Below are positions 36,200 through 47,054 of a stretch of 47,054 nt of DNA, one piece after another. Source of the DNA: Paracoccaceae bacterium (GTDB lineage Bacteria; Pseudomonadota; Alphaproteobacteria; Rhodobacterales; Rhodobacteraceae); NCBI GenBank assembly GCA_018223125.1, contig JAAEZA010000011.1, forward strand, positions 41,449-88,502, written 5' to 3'. The position numbers were made by a program, and so were the translations under genes. Numbering within the stretch: the stretch's first letter is position 1; the number at the start of each line of letters is the position of its first letter. A model generated the notes under the pieces. The model was given only the letters and a program-made list of their open reading frames with translations, searched no databases and had not been told where the DNA came from.

Positions 36200-37594
36200 T
36201 TATTGGGGATCAACGGGGCGGATTGCAGGGTGTGCGGCCTCAATATCCCGACCTGCTGCAATCAGGATATCCTCGCGATAGCGCCGTGCCAGTAGCTGCA
36301 CGCCCATCGGCTTCCCCGCAGCCGGTTCAGTCGCAACCGCCAACCCCGGCAGTCCGAGGGCCGGAACCGCAAGCTGGGTCAGTTGCGCCCGCATGATCGC
36401 CTTGAACCCCTCTTCGGACTGAACATCCGCCTGCTGGTCAAAGGGCAACATCCCCGAGACGGGGCAGATCAACACGGAATATTGCGCCAGAAACAACTGC
36501 CACGCGCGCAGGTGGGTGACACGATCCCGCAGCGCATCAAGCAATCCCCCCGCATCCACCGGCGCAGAGAGGGACTGCATCACGCCAAAGACATGCTGGC
36601 TGTCCGGCTCCCCTTCCTGTTCGACCATCCGGTCCACGCCGTGGCGCATCTCTGCCAGCCAGAGTTTGGCATTGATGTCGGCGGCGGGTTGCATTGGCGG
36701 GCAGTCGACCTCCTCCACCTCCCAGCCAGCATCCGCCAGATCTTTTGCCGCGCCACGCAGGGCCGCCTCGATTTCCGGTGTGATCTCCATCCCGTCAGGG
36801 CGCAGGCACAGGGCAGCGCGGCGCGGGAAAGCGCCCTGATCAATGGGCGCAGGCACATACCACGGATCGCGCAGATCCTCTGCCGCCATCGCCCGCAGGC
36901 TAAGGTCAATGTCATCCATACTGCGTGCCAGCGGCCCGCCCACCGCCATCAGCTGCCCTCCGATATGCCGGTCCGCCCCCGAAGGATTATAGGCCGGCAA
37001 CCGCCCGAGCGTGGGCCGCAGCCCGTGGATCCCGCAGGCATAGGCAGGGTAGCGGATCGAGCCGCCAATATCCGTGCCGTGCCCGACCGCAGCCATCCCG
37101 CTGGCCACCGAAGACCCCGCCCCGCCGGAAGACCCGCCCGGCGTAATATTCTTCCCATGGGGATTGAGCGTCTGGCCATGCAGATTGTTCTTGGTAAACC
37201 AGCGCAGGGAAAACGCAGGAGTGTTTGTGCGCCCGACGATCACCGCCCCGGCCTTACGCATATTCGCCACCACGGGGCTGTCCTGTTCGGCGACAAGGTT
37301 TTCAAGCATTTTCAGACCATTAGTGGTCGCATGACCAACCTGATCCACATTGACCTTGATCGTCACCGGCACGCCGGCCATCGGTCCGACATCCCGTCCT
37401 GCCGCAATATCCGCATCAACCGCCGCCGCCGCTGACAGCGCCTCTTCGGGCATGTGCTGTACCACGGCGTTCAGCGCGGGATTGACCGCATCAATCCGGT
37501 CCAGATGGGCCTTTGCGACTTCGGTCGCGGAAAGGTCTTTGTTGCGGATTTTCGCTGCGATTTCGGTGGCGCTGAGGGTCCAGATATCGGACAT
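36200..37594 (-). CDS. Amidase signature family protein
   Basis: Amidase of 464 residues with a Ser-cisSer-Lys triad: K80 in VTIKVNV, cis-Ser S155 in TPGGSSGGAG and nucleophile S179 in TDIGGSIR. The spacing of 75 and 24 residues equals that of fatty acid amide hydrolase. Hydrolyses an amide to acid and ammonia or amine; no tRNA amidotransferase partners (GatB/C) adjoin, so it is catabolic rather than GatA. ATG at 37594 follows AGGAG. No signal peptide. Divergent from the small membrane protein gene; an inverted repeat ACGGA-N6-TCCGT at 37653-37668 lies between them. Confidence 0.92.
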   Translation of the reverse strand: MSDIWTLSATEIAAKIRNKDLSATEVAKAHLDRIDAVNPALNAVVQHMPEEALSAAAAVDADIAAGRDVGPMAGVPVTIKVNVDQVGHATTNGLKMLENLVAEQDSPVVANMRKAGAVIVGRTNTPAFSLRWFTKNNLHGQTLNPHGKNITPGGSSGGAGSSVASGMAAVGHGTDIGGSIRYPAYACGIHGLRPTLGRLPAYNPSGADRHIGGQLMAVGGPLARSMDDIDLSLRAMAAEDLRDPWYVPAPIDQGAFPRRAALCLRPDGMEITPEIEAALRGAAKDLADAGWEVEEVDCPPMQPAADINAKLWLAEMRHGVDRMVEQEGEPDSQHVFGVMQSLSAPVDAGGLLDALRDRVTHLRAWQLFLAQYSVLICPVSGMLPFDQQADVQSEEGFKAIMRAQLTQLAVPALGLPGLAVATEPAAGKPMGVQLLARRYREDILIAAGRDIEAAHPAIRPVDPQ

Positions 37595-38038: not shown

Positions 38039-39361
38039 TCAGGCCAGACCGGCAGCCACTGCTCTTGAAAGCTTGCCGACAAGTTCGTCGATCTGGGTAT
38101 CGGTGATGATGAACGGCGGCGCCAGCAGGACATGATCGCCGCTTTGCCCGTCGATCGTGCCGCCCATCGGATAACAGATCATACCCGCCTCGAACGCCGC
38201 TGCCTTGATCCGTGCCGCTGTTTTACGCTCCGGATCGAGCGGCGTTTTGCTGAGCCGGTCAGCCACCAGTTCCACCCCCACGAACAGCCCGCGCCCGCGG
38301 ATGTCCCCTACATGGGGATGGGCGTCAAACTCGGACGAGAGGGCAGCTCTCAGCCTCTGGCCCTGACGCTCTGCCGCAGTGACCAGATCCCGTTCCCGCA
38401 GGGATTTCAGCACGGCCACACCGGCTGCTGCGGCACAAGGGTGGCCGATATACGTATGTCCGTGCTGGAAAAAGCCGCTCCCCTGTTCGATAGTGCGGTA
38501 AATTTCCTGACTGCACAGCATGGCACCTACCGGCTGATAGCCCGCGCCCAAGCCTTTGGCGATACACAGAATATCAGGTGCCACCCCGTCCTGTTCACAG
38601 GCAAACAGGCTGCCGGTGCGCCCCATGCCACACATGACTTCGTCCAGTATCAGCAGGATACCGTATTGATCGCAAATCTCGCGGATACGCTTGAAATAAC
38701 CCTTCACGGCAGGCACGGCCCCGGCAGTGGCCCCCACGACCGGCTCTGCAATAAAAGCCATGACGGTTTCCGGCCCGACCCGCAGCAGTTCTTCTTCCAG
38801 CAGGTTGGCGGCGCGGATGCCATAGGCTTCCTCGCTCTCGCCGTCCTGTTGCAGACGATAGGCGTAACAGGGGTCGATATGGCTCATGTCGATCAGCAGC
38901 GGCCCAAACTGGGCCCGCCGCCACGCATTGCCCCCTGCCGAAAGCGCCCCCATCGTGTTGCCGTGATAGCTTTGCTTGCGGGCGATCAACCGGCCCCTCC
39001 GGGGCTCTCCTTTTTCGACAAAATACTGCCGCGCCAGTTTCAGCGCCGCCTCGACCGCTTCGGAGCCGCCGGAGACAAGGTAAACACGGTCCAGATCACC
39101 GGGCGCCTGTTCGATCAGCATATCAGCGAGTGTTTCAGCCGGTTCGGAGGTCAAAAACCCCGTATGGGCATAGGCAAGGCTGTCCAGTTGCGCCTTAACA
39201 GCCTCGATAACCGTGCGGTCATTGTGCCCTAGACAGGACACAGCCGCCCCGCCGGAGGCATCAAGATACTGCTTGCCAGCCGCATCATAGAGATAGCAGC
39301 CCTCACCGCGCACCGCGACGGGTGGGGTCTGTTTCGTATGGCGGGGAAAAATATGGGACAT
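38039..39361 (-). CDS. Class III (omega) aminotransferase
   Basis: PLP enzyme of fold type I, 440 residues. The PLP lysine is K269 in CIAKGLGAGYQPVGA and the ring-nitrogen Asp is D240 in LILDEVMCGMGRTG; phosphate contacts are in VSGGSEAVEAA (97-107). The family acts on terminal amines, such as diamines, beta-alanine or 4-aminobutyrate, with pyruvate or 2-oxoglutarate. Last gene of the leftward operon, nine bases after the C45-type hydrolase gene. A terminal amine made by the decarboxylase of the same operon would be a natural substrate; this is inference. Confidence 0.93.
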   Translation of the reverse strand: MSHIFPRHTKQTPPVAVRGEGCYLYDAAGKQYLDASGGAAVSCLGHNDRTVIEAVKAQLDSLAYAHTGFLTSEPAETLADMLIEQAPGDLDRVYLVSGGSEAVEAALKLARQYFVEKGEPRRGRLIARKQSYHGNTMGALSAGGNAWRRAQFGPLLIDMSHIDPCYAYRLQQDGESEEAYGIRAANLLEEELLRVGPETVMAFIAEPVVGATAGAVPAVKGYFKRIREICDQYGILLILDEVMCGMGRTGSLFACEQDGVAPDILCIAKGLGAGYQPVGAMLCSQEIYRTIEQGSGFFQHGHTYIGHPCAAAAGVAVLKSLRERDLVTAAERQGQRLRAALSSEFDAHPHVGDIRGRGLFVGVELVADRLSKTPLDPERKTAARIKAAAFEAGMICYPMGGTIDGQSGDHVLLAPPFIITDTQIDELVGKLSRAVAAGLA

Positions 39362-39370
39362 TACAGGCTC

Positions 39371-40342
39371 CTAAGCAGCGCCGGGGATTCTGACCCTCCG
39401 GCTCCCTTCGTTGAAGTTATCCATGGAAAAGGACCAGATTGTGCCCGGCCAGCGCACTTCCATTTCTTGCAGTCTCGGGCGGTAAACGGCGGTGTAAAGC
39501 GTACCGAATCCCGCGTCGAAAGCTGTGGAATACAGCGGCGGTTTGAGAAACGCACCTATAAATTTGTCCTCCGGATCACGATGCAGCGCCATACGTTGCA
39601 AAAGGAACCGTTCCCGTTCGACCGTGGCCGTAAACCGCGCGTGACTGACCCATTCCACGCTCTCCTGATGGTTGGTCGCAACCGCTGCGCGGGTGATCAC
39701 AGCCGGTCGGTCCGGTGCCATCATAGCCGTCAGATACTGGCGTTTTGCATCCAGCACCGTGACGTTATAGCTCATATGCGTGGGGACACGGGCCAGCACC
39801 TTGCCCGCCTGTTCCGCGGTTTCGCAGGTCTGCAAGACATAGCGCAGGATCAGGGGCACACCGAAACCCGTCCCGACAATGCGCCGCCCTCCGAACGTCA
39901 GCGATATGGAAAGCCCCGCATCATTGCAGCCATCCACCATCCCCCACAAGCCGTCCGAAAGGCCCATAACCCGACGTCCCTGCCAGCCGGTGTGAAGTAT
40001 CAGACTGTCAAATGCATTGGGATTGTAATCGTAATTGCGCACAAGAACCGGCTCCTTGCCGGTCCAGATTGCCTGAGAACACCCTGCCAGATAAGGCGGC
40101 GGACAATAAAAGCTGAGGAACCGGGCCGCCTGATCGCCGCCGCCCGCCAGTTCACAGAGCGTGTCATACAGCGGCACAATCTCGGGCATGTGGGTTGCCA
40201 GCGCACGTCGGCTTTCCAGATAGCTCGGTCGGGCACTGTCCCCTTCCCGTATCCACCAGCGCCTGTAAAGGGGCCAGTATTCACCAAACAGCCCGGACCA
40301 TTTCGCCCCGGGCTGTTTTTCGCTGATTGCACGCCAGTACAT
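39371..40342 (-). CDS. C45-type Ntn hydrolase / acyltransferase-like protein
   Basis: A 323-residue protein resembling the C45 peptidase/isopenicillin N acyltransferase family. The likely autocatalytic site is Gly87-Cys88 in YLAGCSQAIW, followed by LVRNYDYNPNAFDS, where family members have R-N-x-D-(Y/F). Further on, GLSDGLWGMVDGCNDAGLSI and the NVTVLDA / AVATNHQ segments match the fold. Family members mature by self-cleavage before Cys and then hydrolyse or transfer acyl groups on amide bonds. The start ATG at 40342 follows AAGGAG, which itself overlaps the TAA of the ATP-grasp gene. No signal peptide, so the reaction is probably cytoplasmic. Substrate unknown. Confidence 0.8.
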   Translation of the reverse strand: MYWRAISEKQPGAKWSGLFGEYWPLYRRWWIREGDSARPSYLESRRALATHMPEIVPLYDTLCELAGGGDQAARFLSFYCPPPYLAGCSQAIWTGKEPVLVRNYDYNPNAFDSLILHTGWQGRRVMGLSDGLWGMVDGCNDAGLSISLTFGGRRIVGTGFGVPLILRYVLQTCETAEQAGKVLARVPTHMSYNVTVLDAKRQYLTAMMAPDRPAVITRAAVATNHQESVEWVSHARFTATVERERFLLQRMALHRDPEDKFIGAFLKPPLYSTAFDAGFGTLYTAVYRPRLQEMEVRWPGTIWSFSMDNFNEGSRRVRIPGAA

Positions 40343-40350
40343 GGTTCTCC

Positions 40351-41808
40351 TTACAAGATCTTGAAGGCGGGATCGGCCACTGCAGGACCGGCATCAGCCA
40401 CAGGCAGCGCCTTGCCGTTCACGGATTGCTTGATGCCGTGAATCCACTTTTTCGCACGCTCGTTCAACTGGAATCCTTTGGTCATGGAGCGGCCCCGCGT
40501 TACCAGAATACCAATGTCCGCACCTTCATAGCGATAGTCGCCCGGTTGCAGGATACGCAGGAAAAACGCCTCGTTCTCGCTCTCGACCGCGCGGCGGTGA
40601 TAGTCGAACCGGTCGAACACCACGCGACCGTCCTCCAGCATTTTATAAATGCCGGTTTCCGGCGCTTCGGTACAAATGTCCACGGAATCCTCGGTGTGTT
40701 TGATCACCATCTGCGACCAGCTGTCGATCATGTCGGGATCGGCCCAACGGTTGTTCAGCTCTTCCGTGTCGAGATCGAATTTCTTGCGGGAAAACTCCAG
40801 CAGGTGGAACAGGAACAGCGGCGCATCCGCATGGGCAAAGGCCGCGTGATTGGTCATCGACGATGCCCCCGTGATCCGCGGGTTCAGTTCGCCAAGCCAC
40901 AGGTCGCCGGTCTTTTTGTCGATCAGGAAGTCGAGTTCGAAATACCCGCGATAGCCTTCCTTGCGCAATTGTTCCCCGAACTTGAAGGTCAGTTCCCGCG
41001 CCTTTTCCCGCACTTTCGGAGGAAAGGCGGTGGACAGGATTTCATTGCCGCACCAGCCGCCGCGATAGGGTGTCAATTCGTCAAAGCCGACAAGTTCCGT
41101 CATCAGCGGGCCAACGATCGTGCCTTCTTTGGTGGCACAGCCTTCAATCGCAGAGCCACGGCAGTCAATCCGCTTCATGATCTTGATCTCGCCCTCTCCG
41201 ACGATTTCATGTTCGTGACGGCGGAAGTCGGCCTCGTTCTTGATAAAGAACGTGGTGTGGCCGCTGTCGCCAAAGGCGGATTGCAGCACCAGATCGTGGC
41301 CAAGCTTGGCTTTTTCGCAAGTCTTGCGCAGGTCGTCGTAATCCTTCACCTCGGCCAGCACATTTGGCACAGACGGCACACCCGCCTTGTTGCCGATCCG
41401 CACGGTTTCGATCTTGTTATCCATTTTGGTGCGCAGCTTGGCTTTGGGGAACCAGACATCCGCGCCCAATTCTTTGGACAGGCGTTCTGTTTCTTCATCA
41501 AACATCAGGAAAACGAATTTCGGCTTGCCGCCGCGCCGCTTGATAAAGTCGATAACCTCTTTGTGTTGCAGCAGGTAGTTGTTGATGTCCTCGATGCTTT
41601 GAAATTCCGCATGGGGCTGTTCGGACGGGCAGAACACGTTGGGATGTTTGCCACCATAACAGTCTATGTAGCAGATATATTTGAAGTTTTTGACCCATTC
41701 GTCGAGACCGAGCAGGTTGAAATTGGTTGCCGAAATGAAATAGATCGGATCTTCGTTGCGGTGGAAGAAGCGCCGGATTTCAGAGATGTTTTTAAGCACT
41801 GTCGCCAT
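40351..41808 (-). CDS. ATP-grasp ligase of unknown specificity
   Basis: A 485-residue ATP-grasp protein. The glycine-rich loop is VLQSAFGDSGHTTFF (174-188) and the metal-binding residues are in FELDFLID (290-297) and LGELNPRITGAS (305-316). No biotin-carboxylase partner domain or biotin carrier is present. Such stand-alone enzymes usually join a carboxylate to an amine with ATP, by way of an acyl-phosphate. The N-terminal 100 residues form a pre-ATP-grasp domain with no motif I can name. It sits between a PLP decarboxylase, which would make an amine, and a C45-type amide hydrolase/acyltransferase, so amide-bond chemistry on an amine is the simplest reading. Start ATG follows AAGGA. Confidence 0.85.
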   Translation of the reverse strand: MATVLKNISEIRRFFHRNEDPIYFISATNFNLLGLDEWVKNFKYICYIDCYGGKHPNVFCPSEQPHAEFQSIEDINNYLLQHKEVIDFIKRRGGKPKFVFLMFDEETERLSKELGADVWFPKAKLRTKMDNKIETVRIGNKAGVPSVPNVLAEVKDYDDLRKTCEKAKLGHDLVLQSAFGDSGHTTFFIKNEADFRRHEHEIVGEGEIKIMKRIDCRGSAIEGCATKEGTIVGPLMTELVGFDELTPYRGGWCGNEILSTAFPPKVREKARELTFKFGEQLRKEGYRGYFELDFLIDKKTGDLWLGELNPRITGASSMTNHAAFAHADAPLFLFHLLEFSRKKFDLDTEELNNRWADPDMIDSWSQMVIKHTEDSVDICTEAPETGIYKMLEDGRVVFDRFDYHRRAVESENEAFFLRILQPGDYRYEGADIGILVTRGRSMTKGFQLNERAKKWIHGIKQSVNGKALPVADAGPAVADPAFKIL

Positions 41809-41822
41809 AATAGTGTCCTTTA

Positions 41823-44564
41823 TTATTCGGCTGCGGTTTGAATGGTTTTTTCTTCGGTCAGGGCATGAAGCGCGTCTTGGGTAAAGACACGCAGCCCCAG
41901 ATCCGCGCGGTAGCCGTGGATTTCGTTCACATCCAGCGCGCGCATGAAATCAAGGATTTCACGGCTGATAACCTGCCCCGGAACAAGGATCGGAAAACCG
42001 GGCGGATAGGGAATGATAAAGCTGGCGGAAACCAGTTCCTTGCCCTCTTCCATCGCCGCCTTCAGCGATCCGTTCAGTTCGAGATAATCGCAATTTTTCT
42101 CATTATAGCTAAGGTAGTAGGCTTTGCGGATATCCCCTTCAGGGGTCAGGTTATCGGGTCGGAACCCGTCATGGAAACGGCTGAAATCCGGCAGAGGCGG
42201 ATAGTTTTCCATCAGGTTTGCCACCCGCCGGTCAAAGGCCAGACGCTCCATGTTGGACGCATCATCCAGTAGATCATCAAGTTCCTTGGCAATTTCCACC
42301 AGCACTTCGATCAGATAGGCCACCGACGAGCGCGTGGTGCCGATATTGGTCATGAACAGCACGGTATTGCGCGAGGTTTTGTTGATCTGGATGCCGTATT
42401 TGTCCATCAGCACCTGATTTTTGAACGTATCACCATCCCATCCGGTGCCCCCCACAGCCAAGGTAACGCGGGTGGCGTCCAGAACGAAGTCGTCCTGTTC
42501 CCAACATTCCCACAGGTCGGTCCAGCCTTGTTCCGTATCAAAATAACTGGTGACCCCGCTTTGGCGATAGCTGTCGGGGATCATGTCCCCAGCCGTCAAC
42601 ACTTTGAAATATTTCTGCAAAAGTGGATGGCTGCTGATCGCGCGGCGCAGGGCCATTGCGGCCTCTATCTGGCGCTGGACGAACTCGAAACCTTCCAGCT
42701 CCACCTGCCGCCGTCCCACATCAAGCGAGGCAATAATCTGGTAGTTGGGCGAGGTTGAGGTATGGGTCATATAAGCTTCATGGAAGTTCTGCTCCACCTC
42801 GCCCTTGAAATCCTGATCGTTGACGTGGATCATTGATCCCTGCCGCAGGGAGGTCAGGGTTTTATGGGTGGATTGCGTCGCATAGGCCCTGACCCGCGCT
42901 GTGGGCGGCGGGATCAACCGCGTGTTCAAAAGGTCTTCGTCACTGGCCCCTTCCAGCTGTTTTTGCTGCGCCTCGTAGGCGGCAACGTGCTGGTCCGAGC
43001 GCAACCGCTTGCGCAGGTTGTTGGCCGAGCGCATCGCAGTGCGTTGTCTGTAAGTGGGGCTAAAGCGGGCAAATGCAAACCAAGCTTCGTCCCACAGGAA
43101 AACAAGGTCCGGCTTGATCGCCAGACATTCCTCCATTACCCGCTGCACGTTGTAGACCACCCCGTCAAAGGTGCAGTTGGTCAGCAACAGCATACGCACA
43201 CGATCCAGCTTACCTGCCGCCTTGAGCGCCAGAAGCTGGTGCTTGATCTCGCGCAGGGGCACCGCGCCATACATGGAATATTCATTGAGCGGATAGCTGT
43301 CGAGATAGAGCACCTCGGCCCCTGCCAGCACCATTCCGTAGTGATGGGATTTATGGCAGTCCCGATCCACCAGCACGATGTCGCCGGGACGCACCAGCGC
43401 CTGCACCACGATCTTGTTACAGGTCGAGGTGCCGTTCGTCGCAAAAAAGGTCTGTTTGGACCCGAATGCGCGACTGGCCAGTTCCTGTGCCTTCTTGATC
43501 GGCCCGCTTGGTTCCAGCAGGCTGTCCAGCCCGCCGGATGTGGCAGAGGTTTCCGCCAGAAAGATGTTCGGCCCGTAAAACGCCCCCATATCCTGAATCC
43601 AGTGGGACCGGCTGATGGATTTTCCACGACTTATCGGCATGGCGTGGAAAACACCGGTGGGCTGTTTTGAATATTCGACCAGCGCCGTGAAAAACGGCGA
43701 TTTATTCCGTGCCTCAACCCCGCGCAGGATGTTGAGGTGCAATTCCATGAAATCTTCCTGATTGTAGAAAACCCGCCGGCAGATCCCCAAATCCAGACCT
43801 GCGATTTCTTCAACCGAGCGTTCGGTGACAAGATAGGCATCCAGTTCGGGTCGGACCTGCTGTATCAGGCGGCACAATTCAGCGCCGTAGTTTTCCGGCA
43901 GCAGATTGTCCAGATCCTCGCCACTGCCCAGATGGGACAGGTATTTCTTCAGAATTTCGTTTTCGTTTCTGGATTTCAGTGTCAGACCCGGACGGGCGAC
44001 GATGGCCTGAATATTGTGGTTGAACAGCACCGCAATCAGCGCGTCTTCCAGACTGGGAACCACCACGGCTTCATAGTGGAACGGGTCTTCAACCCGGCGC
44101 ATCCGCTCCATATTGTTCTTAATCCAGCGTTCCTGCTGGTCGTTCACATTATCGACGATAAGCACTTCGAAATAGGGCCGCGTCATGGCCCGTGCCTCGG
44201 GCGAGAGCAGCGCCTCGTCGTTGTTTTCCTCTTCATCCATACTGTCCCGTTCCAGCGGGATGGACCGGCGCCGGTAAGATCCGGTGGTCAGGGCACGGGT
44301 GACGCGGGTGACGGAAAAAGCCACATCTTCATAATTCCCGTTCTCAAACTGGCGGCGCATGTGAACAAAGGCCGGCATACCCGGAAAGGCCCAGTAGGGT
44401 TCGATACGCGACAGCGCTTTGAACAGTTCCTGAACCTCGTCCGAATAGCTCTTGATTTTGGCTTGGGAGGTTTCCCTGCAAATCGCGGAAACTGCGGCGC
44501 GCAATGCGGCCCACCTGTCAGACCGCAATTGCGTTGCCGAATAATACTCGCTGACAGAATCCAT
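41823..44564 (-). CDS. Orn/Lys/Arg decarboxylase-type PLP enzyme with N-terminal extension
   Basis: Fold-type I PLP decarboxylase of 913 residues; E. coli AdiA, LdcI and SpeF have 711-755. Residues about 130-250 look like the response-regulator-like wing domain (FEVLIVDNVNDQQERW). The PLP core has FFATNGTSTCNKIV, the ring-stacking His in DRDCHKSHHYG, the Asp in LWDEAWFAFARF (D492) and the lysine K568 in TQSTHKTLT. The C-terminal domain has FIIPYPPGFPILVPG. The first ~128 residues are extra and match nothing I know. Substrate could be arginine, lysine, ornithine or a derivative. The ATG lies in an RNA hairpin (44563-44597). Context is an ATP-grasp and nitrilase operon. Confidence 0.9.
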   Translation of the reverse strand: MDSVSEYYSATQLRSDRWAALRAAVSAICRETSQAKIKSYSDEVQELFKALSRIEPYWAFPGMPAFVHMRRQFENGNYEDVAFSVTRVTRALTTGSYRRRSIPLERDSMDEEENNDEALLSPEARAMTRPYFEVLIVDNVNDQQERWIKNNMERMRRVEDPFHYEAVVVPSLEDALIAVLFNHNIQAIVARPGLTLKSRNENEILKKYLSHLGSGEDLDNLLPENYGAELCRLIQQVRPELDAYLVTERSVEEIAGLDLGICRRVFYNQEDFMELHLNILRGVEARNKSPFFTALVEYSKQPTGVFHAMPISRGKSISRSHWIQDMGAFYGPNIFLAETSATSGGLDSLLEPSGPIKKAQELASRAFGSKQTFFATNGTSTCNKIVVQALVRPGDIVLVDRDCHKSHHYGMVLAGAEVLYLDSYPLNEYSMYGAVPLREIKHQLLALKAAGKLDRVRMLLLTNCTFDGVVYNVQRVMEECLAIKPDLVFLWDEAWFAFARFSPTYRQRTAMRSANNLRKRLRSDQHVAAYEAQQKQLEGASDEDLLNTRLIPPPTARVRAYATQSTHKTLTSLRQGSMIHVNDQDFKGEVEQNFHEAYMTHTSTSPNYQIIASLDVGRRQVELEGFEFVQRQIEAAMALRRAISSHPLLQKYFKVLTAGDMIPDSYRQSGVTSYFDTEQGWTDLWECWEQDDFVLDATRVTLAVGGTGWDGDTFKNQVLMDKYGIQINKTSRNTVLFMTNIGTTRSSVAYLIEVLVEIAKELDDLLDDASNMERLAFDRRVANLMENYPPLPDFSRFHDGFRPDNLTPEGDIRKAYYLSYNEKNCDYLELNGSLKAAMEEGKELVSASFIIPYPPGFPILVPGQVISREILDFMRALDVNEIHGYRADLGLRVFTQDALHALTEEKTIQTAAE

Positions 44565-44597
44565 CGGTTGCTCTCCTTCTTGAAGGCTTCAACCGAT
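44563..44597 (-). promoter_or_regulatory. RNA hairpin enclosing the decarboxylase ribosome-binding site
   Basis: On the minus strand ATCGGTTG (44597-44590) and CAACCGAT (44570-44563) form a perfect 8-bp stem. The second arm includes the A and T of the start codon at 44564. The 19-base loop holds the ribosome site AAGGAG and an internal short hairpin CCTT-CAAG-AAGG that would pair part of it. Translation should be blocked until the stem opens. A temperature, ligand or coupling control is possible; none is proven. Confidence 0.6.
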
Positions 44598-44624
44598 AGC
44601 ACTTGTAGCGATGCTAGGCCGGTA

Positions 44625-45599
44625 TCAGCCGCTTGGTTTGCCACCCACAAAGGGCACATGCCCTACATCGGTAGCGATTTTCTGGCCTTGTATTTCTGCT
44701 TCGGCATCTGCCGGAACATCCACATGGAGACCCGCACGAGAGCCTTGCTGGGGCACCTCCAGCGGACCAAGTGTATTCAGAAATGCGTCTGTCCCGCTGG
44801 TGCGGTCATAGACGGAAAAATCAACAGAGCGGTCACGGAAGCTTTTCAGCACCTGACCAAGCCCCTTCATACCTGTTTCGCGCTGACGGCGGACCATCGA
44901 CAGGTCCACTTCAATGGGGAACATGTCTTCCTGCCCTGCGGACTGGTGCAATACCAGCGAGGTCGGATCGACCACACAGGACTTGCCAACGCCCCCTGCC
45001 CCAAGACCGTTTACATCAAAGACGTAGCATTGGAATTGCGCAGCAGTCGCCCGTGCAATGGCCAGCTCGGCGTCGCGGTCGGTCGTGCCGGTCAGGACCG
45101 GATGCAGCAGCACCTCAACCCCCTGACTGGTCAGCTGGCGCGTGGTTTCGGGGAACCACATATCATAGCAGATCGACAGGCCGAAACGGCCCACATCCGG
45201 CACATCGAATACACAGAATTCGGTTCCCGCAGCAATCCCCGCTTCATAGGGCAGGAAGGGAAACATCTTGGCATAGCGGCGCACGATATTGCCGTCGGGA
45301 TCAATCACCAGTGACGTATTATAGACCTGCCCGTCGTGAGGGGACGTCAGGAACATCGAGCCCGGAATAAGCCAGACTTTGTGACGCCGTGCAGCATCGC
45401 AAAAGCGGTCGATGGTTTCATTTTCGGGGGGCAGCTTGTAGCGTTCCAACGGGCCGAATGGCGACAGTTCACTGAACAGGACCATCTGGGTCCAGGGGAA
45501 CCGCGCCATAAGGATGTCGAGCCGTTGCAGCATACCTTCGACATTGGACTGAAGGGCATTAACGTGCATCTGCACGCCGGCAATTGCGAATGGGGTCAT
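44625..45599 (-). CDS. Carbon-nitrogen hydrolase (nitrilase superfamily)
   Basis: Amidase of the nitrilase fold, 324 residues, with the triad E44 (FSELSPFGP), K111 (RRYAKMFPF) and C144 (SICYDMWFPE). Family members hydrolyse amides, carbamoyl-amines or nitriles in the cytoplasm; N-carbamoylputrescine amidase is a polyamine-pathway member. Its place two genes after the transporter and just before the decarboxylase suggests that it trims the imported compound or a decarboxylation product. The ATG at 45599 gives MTPFAIAGVQMHVN, the usual opening; the longer frame overlaps the gap with uspA. 60 bases separate it from the decarboxylase gene. Confidence 0.9.
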   Translation of the reverse strand: MTPFAIAGVQMHVNALQSNVEGMLQRLDILMARFPWTQMVLFSELSPFGPLERYKLPPENETIDRFCDAARRHKVWLIPGSMFLTSPHDGQVYNTSLVIDPDGNIVRRYAKMFPFLPYEAGIAAGTEFCVFDVPDVGRFGLSICYDMWFPETTRQLTSQGVEVLLHPVLTGTTDRDAELAIARATAAQFQCYVFDVNGLGAGGVGKSCVVDPTSLVLHQSAGQEDMFPIEVDLSMVRRQRETGMKGLGQVLKSFRDRSVDFSVYDRTSGTDAFLNTLGPLEVPQQGSRAGLHVDVPADAEAEIQGQKIATDVGHVPFVGGKPSG

Positions 45600-45667
45600 T
45601 GAGGATACTCTCCGTGCTTGCGCTGCCGGCTCTGTTGGTAGGAGTCGATCACCGCTTTGCACTCCTC

Positions 45668-46099
45668 TTAAGCCCTCACCACCAGAACGGAAACAGGAGA
45701 TCTGCTGACGATCCTGTCCGCATTGGAGCCTACCAGAAACTCCCGAAGGCGATCCGGTTTATGGGAAGCCATAACCACCAGATCGCATTTGATTTTTTCG
45801 ATGGTCTTAAGAACCTTACGATGAATCTTACCAAAAGCAAGGTGCTGCTTCACCTTTATGTCATTTGGTATTTCCGTGCGCACCAGCCGGTCAAGCGCGT
45901 TGCTTGCCGCCGCCACGGCCTTCTCTTCAAAGTTTTCCGGAAAGAATCCTTCCACCAGCGGGCTTCCCATATCCGGCACAACGGAAATGATATGCAACAC
46001 ACCGCCAGAGGCCCGCACCAGTTCGATAGACTGGGGCAGCGCCTTGCTCCAGGATTCCCTGTCTGTCAAATCTATCGTCAAAAGAACCGTATTAAACAT
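45668..46099 (-). CDS. Universal stress protein (UspA family)
   Basis: UspA-domain protein of 143 residues, FNTVLLTIDLTD at the N-terminus and the ATP-loop segment VMASHKPDRLREFLVGSNAD, then SPVSVLVVRA at the end. It has the form of nucleotide-binding UspA. It begins ten bases after the TRAP permease stop, with GAGGAGA before ATG. In Halomonas the UspA protein TeaD is encoded with, and regulates, the ectoine TRAP transporter TeaABC; a similar role for this protein is likely by position. Confidence 0.92.
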   Translation of the reverse strand: MFNTVLLTIDLTDRESWSKALPQSIELVRASGGVLHIISVVPDMGSPLVEGFFPENFEEKAVAAASNALDRLVRTEIPNDIKVKQHLAFGKIHRKVLKTIEKIKCDLVVMASHKPDRLREFLVGSNADRIVSRSPVSVLVVRA

Positions 46100-46109
46100 C
46101 TCTTTCTCC

Positions 46110-47054
46110 TCAGGCTGTGGCCGGTTGGCGCAAGGCGCGGCTGTGACGGCCCCGCTGCAGGAAGACGATCAGCGCCAGCAGCAACAGCGCCGGAATGAAC
46201 ATCAGGTATTTGCTCGGCTGCTCCACAGGGCGCAGAACCCGCAAAACCGTCTGGTCCCAATCAAGCCCCGCCTTGGCGGCGGCACTGTCGTAAAGCACGT
46301 CATCCACCATCATCTTGCCATCGGCTTCGCGCAGGATCAGACCGGAACTTTCCAGACGTTCCTCCCCTGTTGCGCCCTCACCGATAGGCAGGATGGCGAC
46401 GAATTCGATCGGATCGCCCAGATCGTTGACACCGGCCACCCGCAGGCGCAGGTCCTCGTTTGTCGGGGTGGCCAATGCGGCAGCGGCCAGTTCGGTCGGC
46501 GCTTCCTCTGTATAGGGCGGTGCAACCATGTCCATCCAGAAGCCCGGGCGGAACAGGGTAAAGGCCACCAGCAACAGAGCGATGGTTTCATAGAACCGGT
46601 TGCGCGCAAGGAACCAGCCTTGTGTGGCCGCTGCAAACAGCAACATCGCAATGGTCGCCACCACAAAGACGAATATACCCTGCACCCATGTGACCTCGAT
46701 CAACAGCAGTTCGGTGTTGAAGATAAACAGGAACGGCAAGGCTGCTGTGCGCAGGGAATAGAAGAAGGCGACAAGGCCGGTGCGGATCGGATCACCGCCC
46801 GACACTGCTGCTGCGGCAAAGCTGGCAAGGCCCACAGGCGGGGTCACATCGGCCATGATACCGAAGTAGAACACGAACAGATGCACCGCGATCAGCGGCA
46901 CGATCAACCCGTTTTGCTGGCCAAGTGTCACGATAACCGGCGCCAGCAGCGCGGAGACAACGATATAGTTCGCAGTGGTCGGCAGGCCCATGCCAAGGAT
47001 CAGTGACAGGATCGCGGTCAGGAACAGGATGGCAAGGATGTTGCCGCCGGAAAG
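46110..47054 (-). CDS. TRAP transporter fused permease (DctQM type) with C-terminal DUF3394-like domain, 5' part outside window
   Basis: C-terminal 314 codons of a fused TRAP permease; the start lies beyond the right edge. The large-subunit motif GMGLPTTANY is followed by GIMADVTPPVGLASFAAAA, the hallmark of fused 4TM/12TM permeases that pair with TAXI-type binding proteins. After the last membrane segments, from about PGFWMDMVAPPYTE, comes a soluble stretch (with GAGVNDLGD-like segments and AKAGLDWDQTVLRV) like the DUF3394 tail, and a final hydrophobic segment LMFIPALLLLALIVF. Imports an organic or amino acid with sodium or proton flow. It heads the visible part of the decarboxylase operon and probably supplies its substrate. 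Confidence 0.92.
   Translation of the reverse strand, partial: LSGGNILAILFLTAILSLILGMGLPTTANYIVVSALLAPVIVTLGQQNGLIVPLIAVHLFVFYFGIMADVTPPVGLASFAAAAVSGGDPIRTGLVAFFYSLRTAALPFLFIFNTELLLIEVTWVQGIFVFVVATIAMLLFAAATQGWFLARNRFYETIALLLVAFTLFRPGFWMDMVAPPYTEEAPTELAAAALATPTNEDLRLRVAGVNDLGDPIEFVAILPIGEGATGEERLESSGLILREADGKMMVDDVLYDSAAAKAGLDWDQTVLRVLRPVEQPSKYLMFIPALLLLALIVFLQRGRHSRALRQPATA

What the first reader, a model, noticed from the sequence alone, without database searches (positions are those of the whole stretch)
38039..47054. Operon joining TRAP uptake, UspA, nitrilase, long PLP decarboxylase, ATP-grasp ligase, C45-type Ntn hydrolase and aminotransferase: candidate undescribed pathway
Seen: seven consecutive minus-strand genes with gaps of 8-68 bases and a ribosome site before each start. 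Known: each family separately makes, breaks or moves amine and amide groups. Inference: an imported amino acid derivative is hydrolysed (nitrilase) and decarboxylated to an amine, the amine is conjugated to a carboxylate by the ATP-grasp enzyme, the amide is cleaved or transacylated by the C45-type protein, and the amine end is removed by the aminotransferase. I know no described pathway with this enzyme set; it could make or salvage a polyamine amide, an osmolyte or a small signalling molecule.
Basis: partly seen in the sequence, partly recalled or inferred. Interest (0 to 1): 0.8.

Follow-up and report, generated by a model that had tools for sequence, protein, structure and literature searches.

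The report
Conserved four-gene amine or ω-amino-acid module
Four neighbouring enzyme genes in this bacterium form a unit that recurs in many marine and soil bacteria, often with genes that use up GABA-like compounds; together they look like an undescribed route for breaking down a nitrogen-rich nutrient.

Summary
The seven-gene minus-strand run at 38039-47054 is real. Its heart is a four-gene module: nitrilase (NIT), long PLP decarboxylase (DC), ATP-grasp enzyme (GRASP) and C45-type Ntn hydrolase (C45). TRAP, UspA and aminotransferase are variable partners. In 390 sampled genomes of the order, close relatives of GRASP and DC occur in exactly the same 79, on one contig in 78 and within 200 bases in 75. 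Of 90 non-redundant loci, 85 hold all four genes. The module reaches other classes. GabT-type aminotransferase lies near 40 of 90 loci against 0 of 20 control windows. DC belongs with M. tuberculosis Rv2531c, whose activity is unknown (passages of PMC12910592). DC has Asn in 116 of 116 readable rows where Lys and Arg decarboxylases have Glu in 'VEKTG', so Arg/Lys/Orn are doubtful substrates. Best reading: an amide-protected catabolic route to GABA-type ω-amino acids, working like Puu but with unrelated ligase and hydrolase. Module and catabolic company are shown; substrate and order of steps are inferred. Six paper searches found no description of this enzyme set.

The parts
39371..40342 (-). 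C45-type Ntn hydrolase/acyltransferase (core)
   Evidence: NCBIfam C45_proenzyme 176.6 bits over cut-off 85; Pfam AAT; Cys88 invariant in the 11-row and 30-row alignments, preceded by Gly, Ala, Ser or Asn; predicted fold (pLDDT 83.9) best matches isopenicillin N acyltransferase 2x1c/2x1d, E 6e-13; in 88 of 90 loci
40351..41808 (-). ATP-grasp enzyme GRASP (core), named 'biotin carboxylase' in databases
   Evidence: PRK06524 752.5 bits over cut-off 684; ELNPR invariant in 14 rows, but where the aligned biotin carboxylase domains read NPRIQVE or NTRIQVE this family reads NPR(I/V)(T/S)G(A/C), and Gln176 stands at an aligned Lys
41823..44564 (-). Long OKR-fold PLP decarboxylase, Rv2531c type (core)
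   Evidence: Full-length match to 9n0n/9n0o, E 1e-288; PLP motif STHK with Lys568 in 116 of 116 readable rows; Asn728 in 116 of 116; in 89 of 90 loci
44625..45599 (-). Nitrilase-superfamily amidase NIT (core)
   Evidence: CN_hydrolase 104.3 bits over cut-off 23.2; Glu44, Lys111, Cys144 invariant in the 10-row alignment; closest solved chains are Nit2, other CN hydrolases and amidases; in 87 of 90 loci
38039..39361 (-). Class III aminotransferase PRK07483 (recurrent partner)
   Evidence: 768.5 bits over cut-off 485; relatives of at least 50% identity in 19 of 90 loci, 0 of 20 controls; solved relatives are class III aminotransferases, among them omega-transaminases and a putrescine aminotransferase
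45668..46099 (-). Universal stress protein (recurrent partner, next to TRAP)
   Evidence: Pfam Usp 79.8 bits; 28 of 90 loci
46110..47054 (-). C-terminal part of a fused TRAP permease with DUF3394 (recurrent partner; gene cut by contig end)
   Evidence: DUF3394 227.4 bits, DctM 45.1 bits; matches residues 609-922 of the 922-aa relative in L085, while contig C65 holds 19-626; 41 of 90 loci

Best explanation
A conserved catabolic module works by amide protection. GRASP spends ATP to put an acyl group (glutamate or a similar carboxylate is my guess) on the ω-amino group of an imported diamino acid or diamine. DC removes the α-carboxyl while the side chain is masked as a neutral amide. An aminotransferase and an aldehyde dehydrogenase then oxidise the freed amine end to an acid. 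C45 (perhaps with NIT for the acyl part or a terminal amide) hydrolyses the amide and releases a GABA-type ω-amino acid, which GabT and succinate-semialdehyde dehydrogenase take to succinate. It works like the Puu pathway with unrelated ligase and hydrolase. Shown: the module, its occurrence as a unit, kept catalytic motifs, neighbours of GABA, arginine and ectoine breakdown. Inferred: substrate, acyl group, order of steps, role of NIT.
For: The same 79 of 390 genomes hold GRASP and DC, 75 within 200 bases; 85 of 90 loci hold all four; gene order shuffles but membership stays (NIT-DC-GRASP-C45; NIT-GRASP-C45-DC). GabT 40 of 90 vs 0 of 20 controls, XRE-cupin regulator 33 of 90 vs 1 of 20; four of four such regulators scanned hit the PuuR model at 115-144 bits, all below its cut-off 211. 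L128 holds a peptide-type importer, an M20 peptidase, NIT, DC, GRASP, C45, then GabT and SSADH, both over a model cut-off, in one run. Two of six DC-less clade II loci sit with a GabT-model aminotransferase over its cut-off, an aldehyde dehydrogenase, and glutaryl-CoA-dehydrogenase-like and glutarate-CoA-transferase-like genes below cut-offs; Shinella-type loci sit with arginine-to-GABA genes. Neutral Asn728 in DC in place of Glu. The S. meliloti locus has a 6-aminohexanoate-dimer-hydrolase homologue, i.e. ω-aminoacyl amide chemistry. The C45 fold is that of an amide acyltransferase.
Against: No enzyme was assayed. DC relatives in loci without GRASP carry the same Asn (six of six aligned) and sit beside Asp/Ala-antiporter-type genes, so the neutral pocket need not mean an acylated substrate. 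SSADH is within the locus in only 7 of 90, GabT is absent from 50 of 90, and 46 of 90 held none of the four importer references at the thresholds used; the own genome has gabT-gabD on another contig. Shinella-type loci already have a full arginine-to-GABA set, so GRASP-C45 must do something else there or act earlier. The module lies among ectoine degradation genes in two genomes of another class, which the scheme does not predict. The GRASP fold prediction failed (pLDDT 55.7). That the VEKTG Glu binds the distal amine is recalled, not read in a paper here.
Confidence: 0.38

Rival explanations
1. Glutamyl-to-GABA route: GRASP makes or recharges a γ-glutamyl amide, DC decarboxylates its glutamyl α-carbon to a GABA amide, C45 (or NIT) frees GABA, GabT/SSADH burn it. 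This resembles the ATP-grasp plus PLP-decarboxylase logic of butirosin side-chain making (recalled), run for catabolism.
For: The neutral DC pocket fits a γ-amide or acid side chain. DC relatives without GRASP sit next to Asp/Ala-antiporter-type genes: of five scanned, three pass the model's cut-off (L211, L213, L214) and two do not (L209, L210), which suggests an acidic amino acid substrate there. GabT near 40 of 90 loci and an FMN glutamate-synthase-type gene near 17 of 90 vs 0 of 20 controls. A DctA/GltP-type symporter gene (below those models' cut-offs) follows C45 in Cupriavidus oxalaticus.
Against: The DC label needs at least three gains or losses on the GRASP tree, so GRASP-C45 must be useful without DC; the Shinella arginine cluster and the ectoine clusters are not explained.
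Confidence: 0.27
2. Biosynthetic operon: GRASP and C45 make and remodel an amide osmolyte, signal or siderophore-like compound from a decarboxylated amino acid; importers and UspA serve stress.
For: The enzyme kinds suit amide synthesis; the module sits among ectoine genes in two genomes and near nif/fix genes on one Rhizobium plasmid.
Against: Repeated company of importers, GabT, PuuR-like and (in some loci) Lrp-type regulators; in both ectoine loci the scanned neighbours are degradation genes; among the recurrent neighbour clusters that I identified there is no exporter or synthase, though most of the rarer neighbours were not annotated.
Confidence: 0.15
3. GRASP is a carboxylase-like enzyme (as its database name says) acting on an amine or guanidine with bicarbonate, and NIT/C45 hydrolyse the carboxylated product.
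For: The nearest solved sequences are biotin carboxylase domains and carbamoyl-phosphate synthetase, at weak scores (best E 5e-6); one module lies among arginine/guanidino genes.
Against: The stretch after NPR that the aligned biotin carboxylases share (IQVE) is replaced; in the own genome none of 13 Biotin_lipoyl matches lies on contig C25 or C65. This speaks against biotin dependence more than against bicarbonate use.
Confidence: 0.1
4. Unrelated catabolic genes brought together by chance or horizontal transfer.
For: The module occurs on plasmids in some strains.
Against: 79 of 79 co-occurrence, 85 of 90 complete cores, shuffled order with kept membership in other classes.
Confidence: 0.03

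Closest known systems
Puu pathway of E. coli (γ-glutamyl-putrescine route; description recalled)
   Same: Logic of ATP-driven amide protection, oxidation, amide hydrolysis, GABA to succinate; PuuR-like regulators and GabT recur near the module
   Different: Ligase is ATP-grasp, not glutamine-synthetase type; hydrolase is C45, not the C26/GATase type; a transaminase may stand for the oxidase; a decarboxylase and a nitrilase are added
Rv2531c-type amino acid decarboxylases (9n0n, 9n0o)
   Same: Full-length homology including the N-terminal extension; same Asn in the VEKTG position
   Different: Rv2531c has Ile where 115 of 116 readable rows here have Arg732; its activity is unknown (passages of PMC12910592)
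Basic amino acid decarboxylases LdcI, LdcA, AdiA
   Same: OKR fold core, PLP lysine motif
   Different: Glu of VEKTG replaced by Asn; E387, one of three acidic residues tested in Vibrio CadA (passages of PMC6297170), aligns with Gln592 of the window protein, while E391 is kept as Glu596
Isopenicillin N acyltransferase (C45/AAT)
   Same: Family model and predicted fold, invariant Cys88
   Different: 13-15% identity in the fold alignments; substrate unknown; no β-lactam genes were recognised among the neighbours that were annotated
Ectoine degradation clusters (doe)
   Same: Two relatives (L186, L188) lie inside such clusters; DoeA and DoeB models pass their cut-offs in both
   Different: None of the window proteins scanned is a Doe protein; doe genes were recognised only in these two loci

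Membership tests
Puu pathway | PuuA: glutamine-synthetase-type ligase | tested here: not met
   The ligase of the module is PRK06524 ATP-grasp type
Puu pathway | PuuD: C26/GATase-type hydrolase | tested here: not met
   The hydrolase is C45 with IAT fold; GATase-type genes were seen on contig C28 of the own genome and before GRASP in L083, not in the window module
Puu pathway | PuuE/GabT, PuuC-type dehydrogenase and PuuR-type regulator linked | tested here: inconclusive
   GabT 40/90, SSADH 7/90, XRE-cupin 33/90 loci; four of four scanned XRE-cupin proteins hit PuuR at 115-144 bits, below its cut-off 211
Basic (Orn/Lys/Arg) amino acid decarboxylase | OKR_DC_1 core with PLP lysine | tested here: met
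   255.6 bits vs 27; STHK motif, Lys568
Basic (Orn/Lys/Arg) amino acid decarboxylase | Acidic residue of VEKTG for the cationic side chain (role recalled) | tested here: not met
   Asn728 in 116 of 116 readable rows; Glu in the AdiA, LdcA and LdcI alignments
Rv2531c-type decarboxylase | Full-length similarity including the long N-terminal region | tested here: met
   Profile positions 22-915 of 917, E 1.3e-288
Biotin carboxylase | IQVE after NPR/NTR (role in bicarbonate binding recalled) | tested here: not met
   Replaced by (I/V)(T/S)G(A/C)
Biotin carboxylase | Biotin carrier partner gene nearby | tested here: not met
   13 Biotin_lipoyl matches in the own genome, none on C25 or C65; carriers can be unlinked, so this is weak; not searched in other loci
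C45/AAT autoproteolytic Ntn hydrolase | Family score, nucleophile Cys, Ntn fold | tested here: met
   176.6 vs 85 bits, Cys88 invariant, best fold matches 2x1c/2x1d
C45/AAT autoproteolytic Ntn hydrolase | Autoproteolysis before the Cys | not testable with these tools
   Needs purified protein
Nitrilase superfamily | Glu-Lys-Cys triad | tested here: met
   E44, K111, C144 invariant; that these are the triad is recalled
Ectoine degradation (doe/eut) | DoeA/EutD and DoeB/EutE present | tested here: not met
   No such match among the nine window proteins scanned; met in L186 and L188

The most novel reading that the evidence does not exclude
An undescribed, plasmid-borne as well as chromosomal protecting-group pathway: an ATP-grasp ligase and a C45 Ntn hydrolase put on and take off an acyl group on ω-amino groups, so that Rv2531c-type decarboxylases act on masked diamino acids or γ-glutamyl amides; it would give the first pathway context for a decarboxylase subfamily whose substrate is unknown even where its structure is solved.
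Probability: 0.4. Interest if true: 0.72.

Novelty: new variant of a known kind. Interest (0 to 1): 0.56.

Why it matters
The module is present in about one fifth of the sampled genomes of this order (79 of 390) and occurs in soil and plant-associated bacteria, so it may process a common nitrogen-rich nutrient that current annotation misses. GRASP is named 'biotin carboxylase' in 16 of the 32 matching plasmid records (in seven more, all fragments, 'hypothetical protein'; nine have nothing annotated there), and the decarboxylase is listed as an aminotransferase in the three annotated regions that hold it. It also offers a non-pathogen setting in which the open question of what Rv2531c-type decarboxylases do can be tested.

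Tried and rejected
Biotin carboxylase as the function of GRASP: rejected on the motif and on the lack of a linked biotin domain. A fixed seven-gene operon: rejected, partners vary. The amidase at 36200-37594 as a member: 444 bases away and no relative of at least 45% identity in 90 loci; an amidase of 31% identity sits in the S. meliloti locus, left open. Arg/Lys/Orn as DC substrate: weakened, not excluded. AlphaFold model of GRASP: pLDDT 55.7, not used for fold searching. PHROGs scan of DC, GRASP and C45: no hits. Six paper searches for the enzyme set: 0, 0, 3, 0, 0 and 2 papers listed; from titles and abstract starts none concerns it. Four other searches: Rv2531c (which led to passages of PMC12910592), decarboxylase active sites (passages of PMC7866039 and PMC6297170 gave nothing on the VEKTG residue).

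The 94 clade I loci are those 80 plus 14 that I chose for spread of identity, merged to 90 at 95% DNA identity of GRASP; closer species kin remain. The own locus L002 and the six clade II loci L078-L083 were left out of the 90. 69 of the 90 hold at least 19 kb, so partner rates are lower bounds. Of the five incomplete cores, L089 and L127 are cut beside the missing genes and L142 is a 5-kb contig; L069 (C45) and L123 (NIT) are absences at the thresholds used. Each partner was sought with one reference protein and its own threshold (script), so for example peptide ABC transporters, seen in several loci, counted in only 1 of 90. The 20 control windows come from the module-bearing contigs of fourteen genomes. 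The 118 rows include near relatives and some fragments. Near kin make the Fisher p-values optimistic.

Full report
WHAT IS THERE. The window is the end of contig C25 (41449-88502) of a 3.9-Mb genome. Seven minus-strand genes run from the contig end inwards: fused TRAP permease (cut), Usp, NIT, DC, GRASP, C45, class III aminotransferase AT, with gaps of 10, 68, 60, 14, 8 and 9 bases and a ribosome site before each of the six readable starts. The rest of TRAP and a TAXI binding protein are at the end of contig C65, which shares an exact 55-base end with C25. Next to them on C65, divergently, lie a polyamine-type ABC transporter set, another class III aminotransferase, an acetyltransferase and an FAD oxidoreductase; the ABC and binding-protein models are below their cut-offs. 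A speB-GATase-gabT-gabD run sits on contig C28, where the agmatinase, GabT and SSADH models pass their cut-offs.

CONSERVED CORE. GRASP was found in 83 of 390 genomes of the order, in 42 of 139 genera; four of the 83 hold only a 46-47% relative (clade II). Close GRASP and close DC occur in the same 79 of 390 genomes; 78 on one contig and one strand, 75 within 200 bases, three at about 3.5 kb. In 90 non-redundant clade I loci NIT is present in 87, DC in 89, C45 in 88, all four in 85, and none of them in any of 20 control windows. In 398 genomes drawn from the phylum GRASP is in 11 and DC in 17; the 11 are among the 17. The seven GRASP genomes outside the family all have DC and C45 in the fetched stretch, and five of seven have NIT. 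Gene order differs (NIT-DC-GRASP-C45, NIT-GRASP-C45-DC, DC-GRASP with NIT and C45 divergent) while membership holds. On plasmids GRASP matches 32 records, 24 with most of the query; I looked at ten of the 32 and all ten carry C45 next to GRASP, in one case (L175) only as a fragment beside a DC in two pieces.

WITHOUT DC. Clade II loci (6 of 6 fetched: L078-L083; L078 is a contig of only 8 kb) hold GRASP, C45 and NIT but no DC; four of these six genomes have no DC anywhere at E 1e-80. In L079 and L080 the neighbours are DctPQM-type TRAP genes, a class III aminotransferase, an aldehyde dehydrogenase, an acyl-CoA dehydrogenase, a CoA-transferase and a PuuR-like regulator. Of the L080 proteins scanned, the aminotransferase passes the general GABA-transaminase model and the binding protein its TRAP model; the models pointing to glutarate (succinate-glutarate CoA-transferase, glutaryl-CoA dehydrogenase) stay below their cut-offs, so a 5-aminovalerate/glutarate route is a suggestion only. 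On Shinella-type plasmids GRASP-C45 lies between an aldehyde dehydrogenase and a D-amino acid dehydrogenase, within genes annotated as agmatinase, 5-guanidino-2-oxopentanoate decarboxylase, alanine racemase and RidA, with a nitrilase-type gene and an Lrp regulator nearby; the agmatinase and decarboxylase models pass in L176. This is an arginine-to-4-guanidinobutyrate-to-GABA set (pathway recalled). A tree of 28 GRASP rows needs four changes of the DC label, at least three forced by well-supported branches. So GRASP-C45 is the most constant pair, and DC looks like an exchangeable feeder.

OTHER COMPANY. Of the 90 loci, TRAP and TAXI are near 41, a GabT-type enzyme near 40, an XRE-cupin regulator near 33, Usp near 28, the PRK07483 aminotransferase near 19, an FMN glutamate-synthase-type gene near 17, SSADH near 7; in the 20 controls only the XRE-cupin regulator (1) and PotA (1) appear. 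Fisher tests: GabT p 5e-5, TRAP p 5e-5, XRE p 0.006; near relatives make these optimistic. Four of four XRE-cupin regulators scanned hit the PuuR model below its cut-off. In L128 importer, M20 peptidase, NIT, DC, GRASP, C45, GabT and SSADH stand in one run, the last two over a model cut-off. Two genomes of another class (L186, L188) hold the module among ectoine degradation genes; DoeA and DoeB models pass in both. The S. meliloti plasmid locus adds a peptide-type ABC transporter, an amidase and a homologue of 6-aminohexanoate-dimer hydrolase (E 8e-62).

THE ENZYMES. DC aligns over nearly its whole length with Rv2531c, a structure without a known activity (passages of PMC12910592; the structure paper itself was not held). 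In 118 aligned rows the PLP lysine is kept in all 116 readable ones, and the residue aligned with Glu of VEKTG in AdiA, LdcA and LdcI is Asn in all 116; that this Glu holds the distal amine is recalled. Six DC relatives of about 50% identity from loci without GRASP have the same Asn. Beside them lie AspT-type transporter genes: of five scanned, L211, L213 and L214 pass the aspartate-alanine antiporter cut-off and L209 and L210 do not; aspartate 4-decarboxylase genes lie near L211's and L214's DC. C45 has an invariant Cys88 and a predicted fold closest to isopenicillin N acyltransferase. NIT has invariant Glu44, Lys111, Cys144. GRASP keeps ELNPR but not the biotin-carboxylase residues behind it, and no biotin/lipoyl domain lies on C25 or C65, so its database name is probably wrong.

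MECHANISM. What most contexts share is the 4-amino (or 4-guanidino) butyrate type of compound or a near homologue: GABA, 4-guanidinobutyrate, 2,4-diaminobutyrate from ectoine, perhaps 5-aminovalerate, and ω-aminoacyl amides. A ligase that would make an amide and an Ntn enzyme that would break one, kept together when the feeder changes, suggests that an acyl group is put on and taken off an ω-amino group. With the neutral DC pocket this gives the scheme stated under best explanation (0.38). The glutamyl-to-GABA route is the closest rival (0.27). Both end in GABA and differ in what GRASP joins. All of this paragraph is inference.

NOVELTY. It would work like Puu but fails two defining features (ligase and hydrolase types), so it is not filed as a Puu pathway. 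No paper describing this enzyme set was found in the held library (listings only), which lacks most subscription journals and all bioRxiv preprints.

Searches were added on re-reading; they confirmed DoeA/DoeB in L188, GabT and SSADH in L128, PuuR-like hits in three further regulators, antiporter matches in L211 and L213 (L210 below cut-off), and the absence of a biotin/lipoyl domain on the two contigs.

Noticed in passing
L209-L211, L213-L215: Rv2531c-type decarboxylases without GRASP nearby sit beside AspT-type antiporter genes (three of five scanned over the cut-off), and in L211 and L214 near aspartate 4-decarboxylase, suggesting a decarboxylase-antiporter pair for an acidic amino acid.
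   Followed up: partly
L175:11141-15682: On a Rhizobium leguminosarum plasmid the DC-GRASP-C45 copy stands close to fixABCX-type genes, nifA and nifB and looks decayed: DC in two pieces, C45 a fragment beside an IS30-type transposase.
   Followed up: partly
L183:24013-25200: Sinorhizobium meliloti homologue of nylon-oligomer hydrolase NylB next to a peptide-type ABC transporter and the DC-GRASP-C45 genes.
   Followed up: partly
L156:5186-6112 and L079, L080: A VOC-type protein and a 120-residue protein without a Pfam or NCBIfam match recur with the module in both clade I and clade II loci.
   Followed up: partly
L148: A record titled Oceanobacillus sp. HTM 045 carries a typical clade I module; its contig has the same length (528389) and neighbours as G036:C727 (L077), which the genome set places in the window's own family, so the title is probably wrong.
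   Followed up: partly
window 47054 and contig C65 end (L247): The window ends inside the TRAP gene because of an assembly break; C65 and C25 share a 55-base end.
   Followed up: yes
L085:2-1573: An FMN-binding glutamate-synthase-type gene lies divergent to the TAXI-TRAP genes; relatives in 17 of 90 loci, 0 of 20 controls.
   Followed up: no
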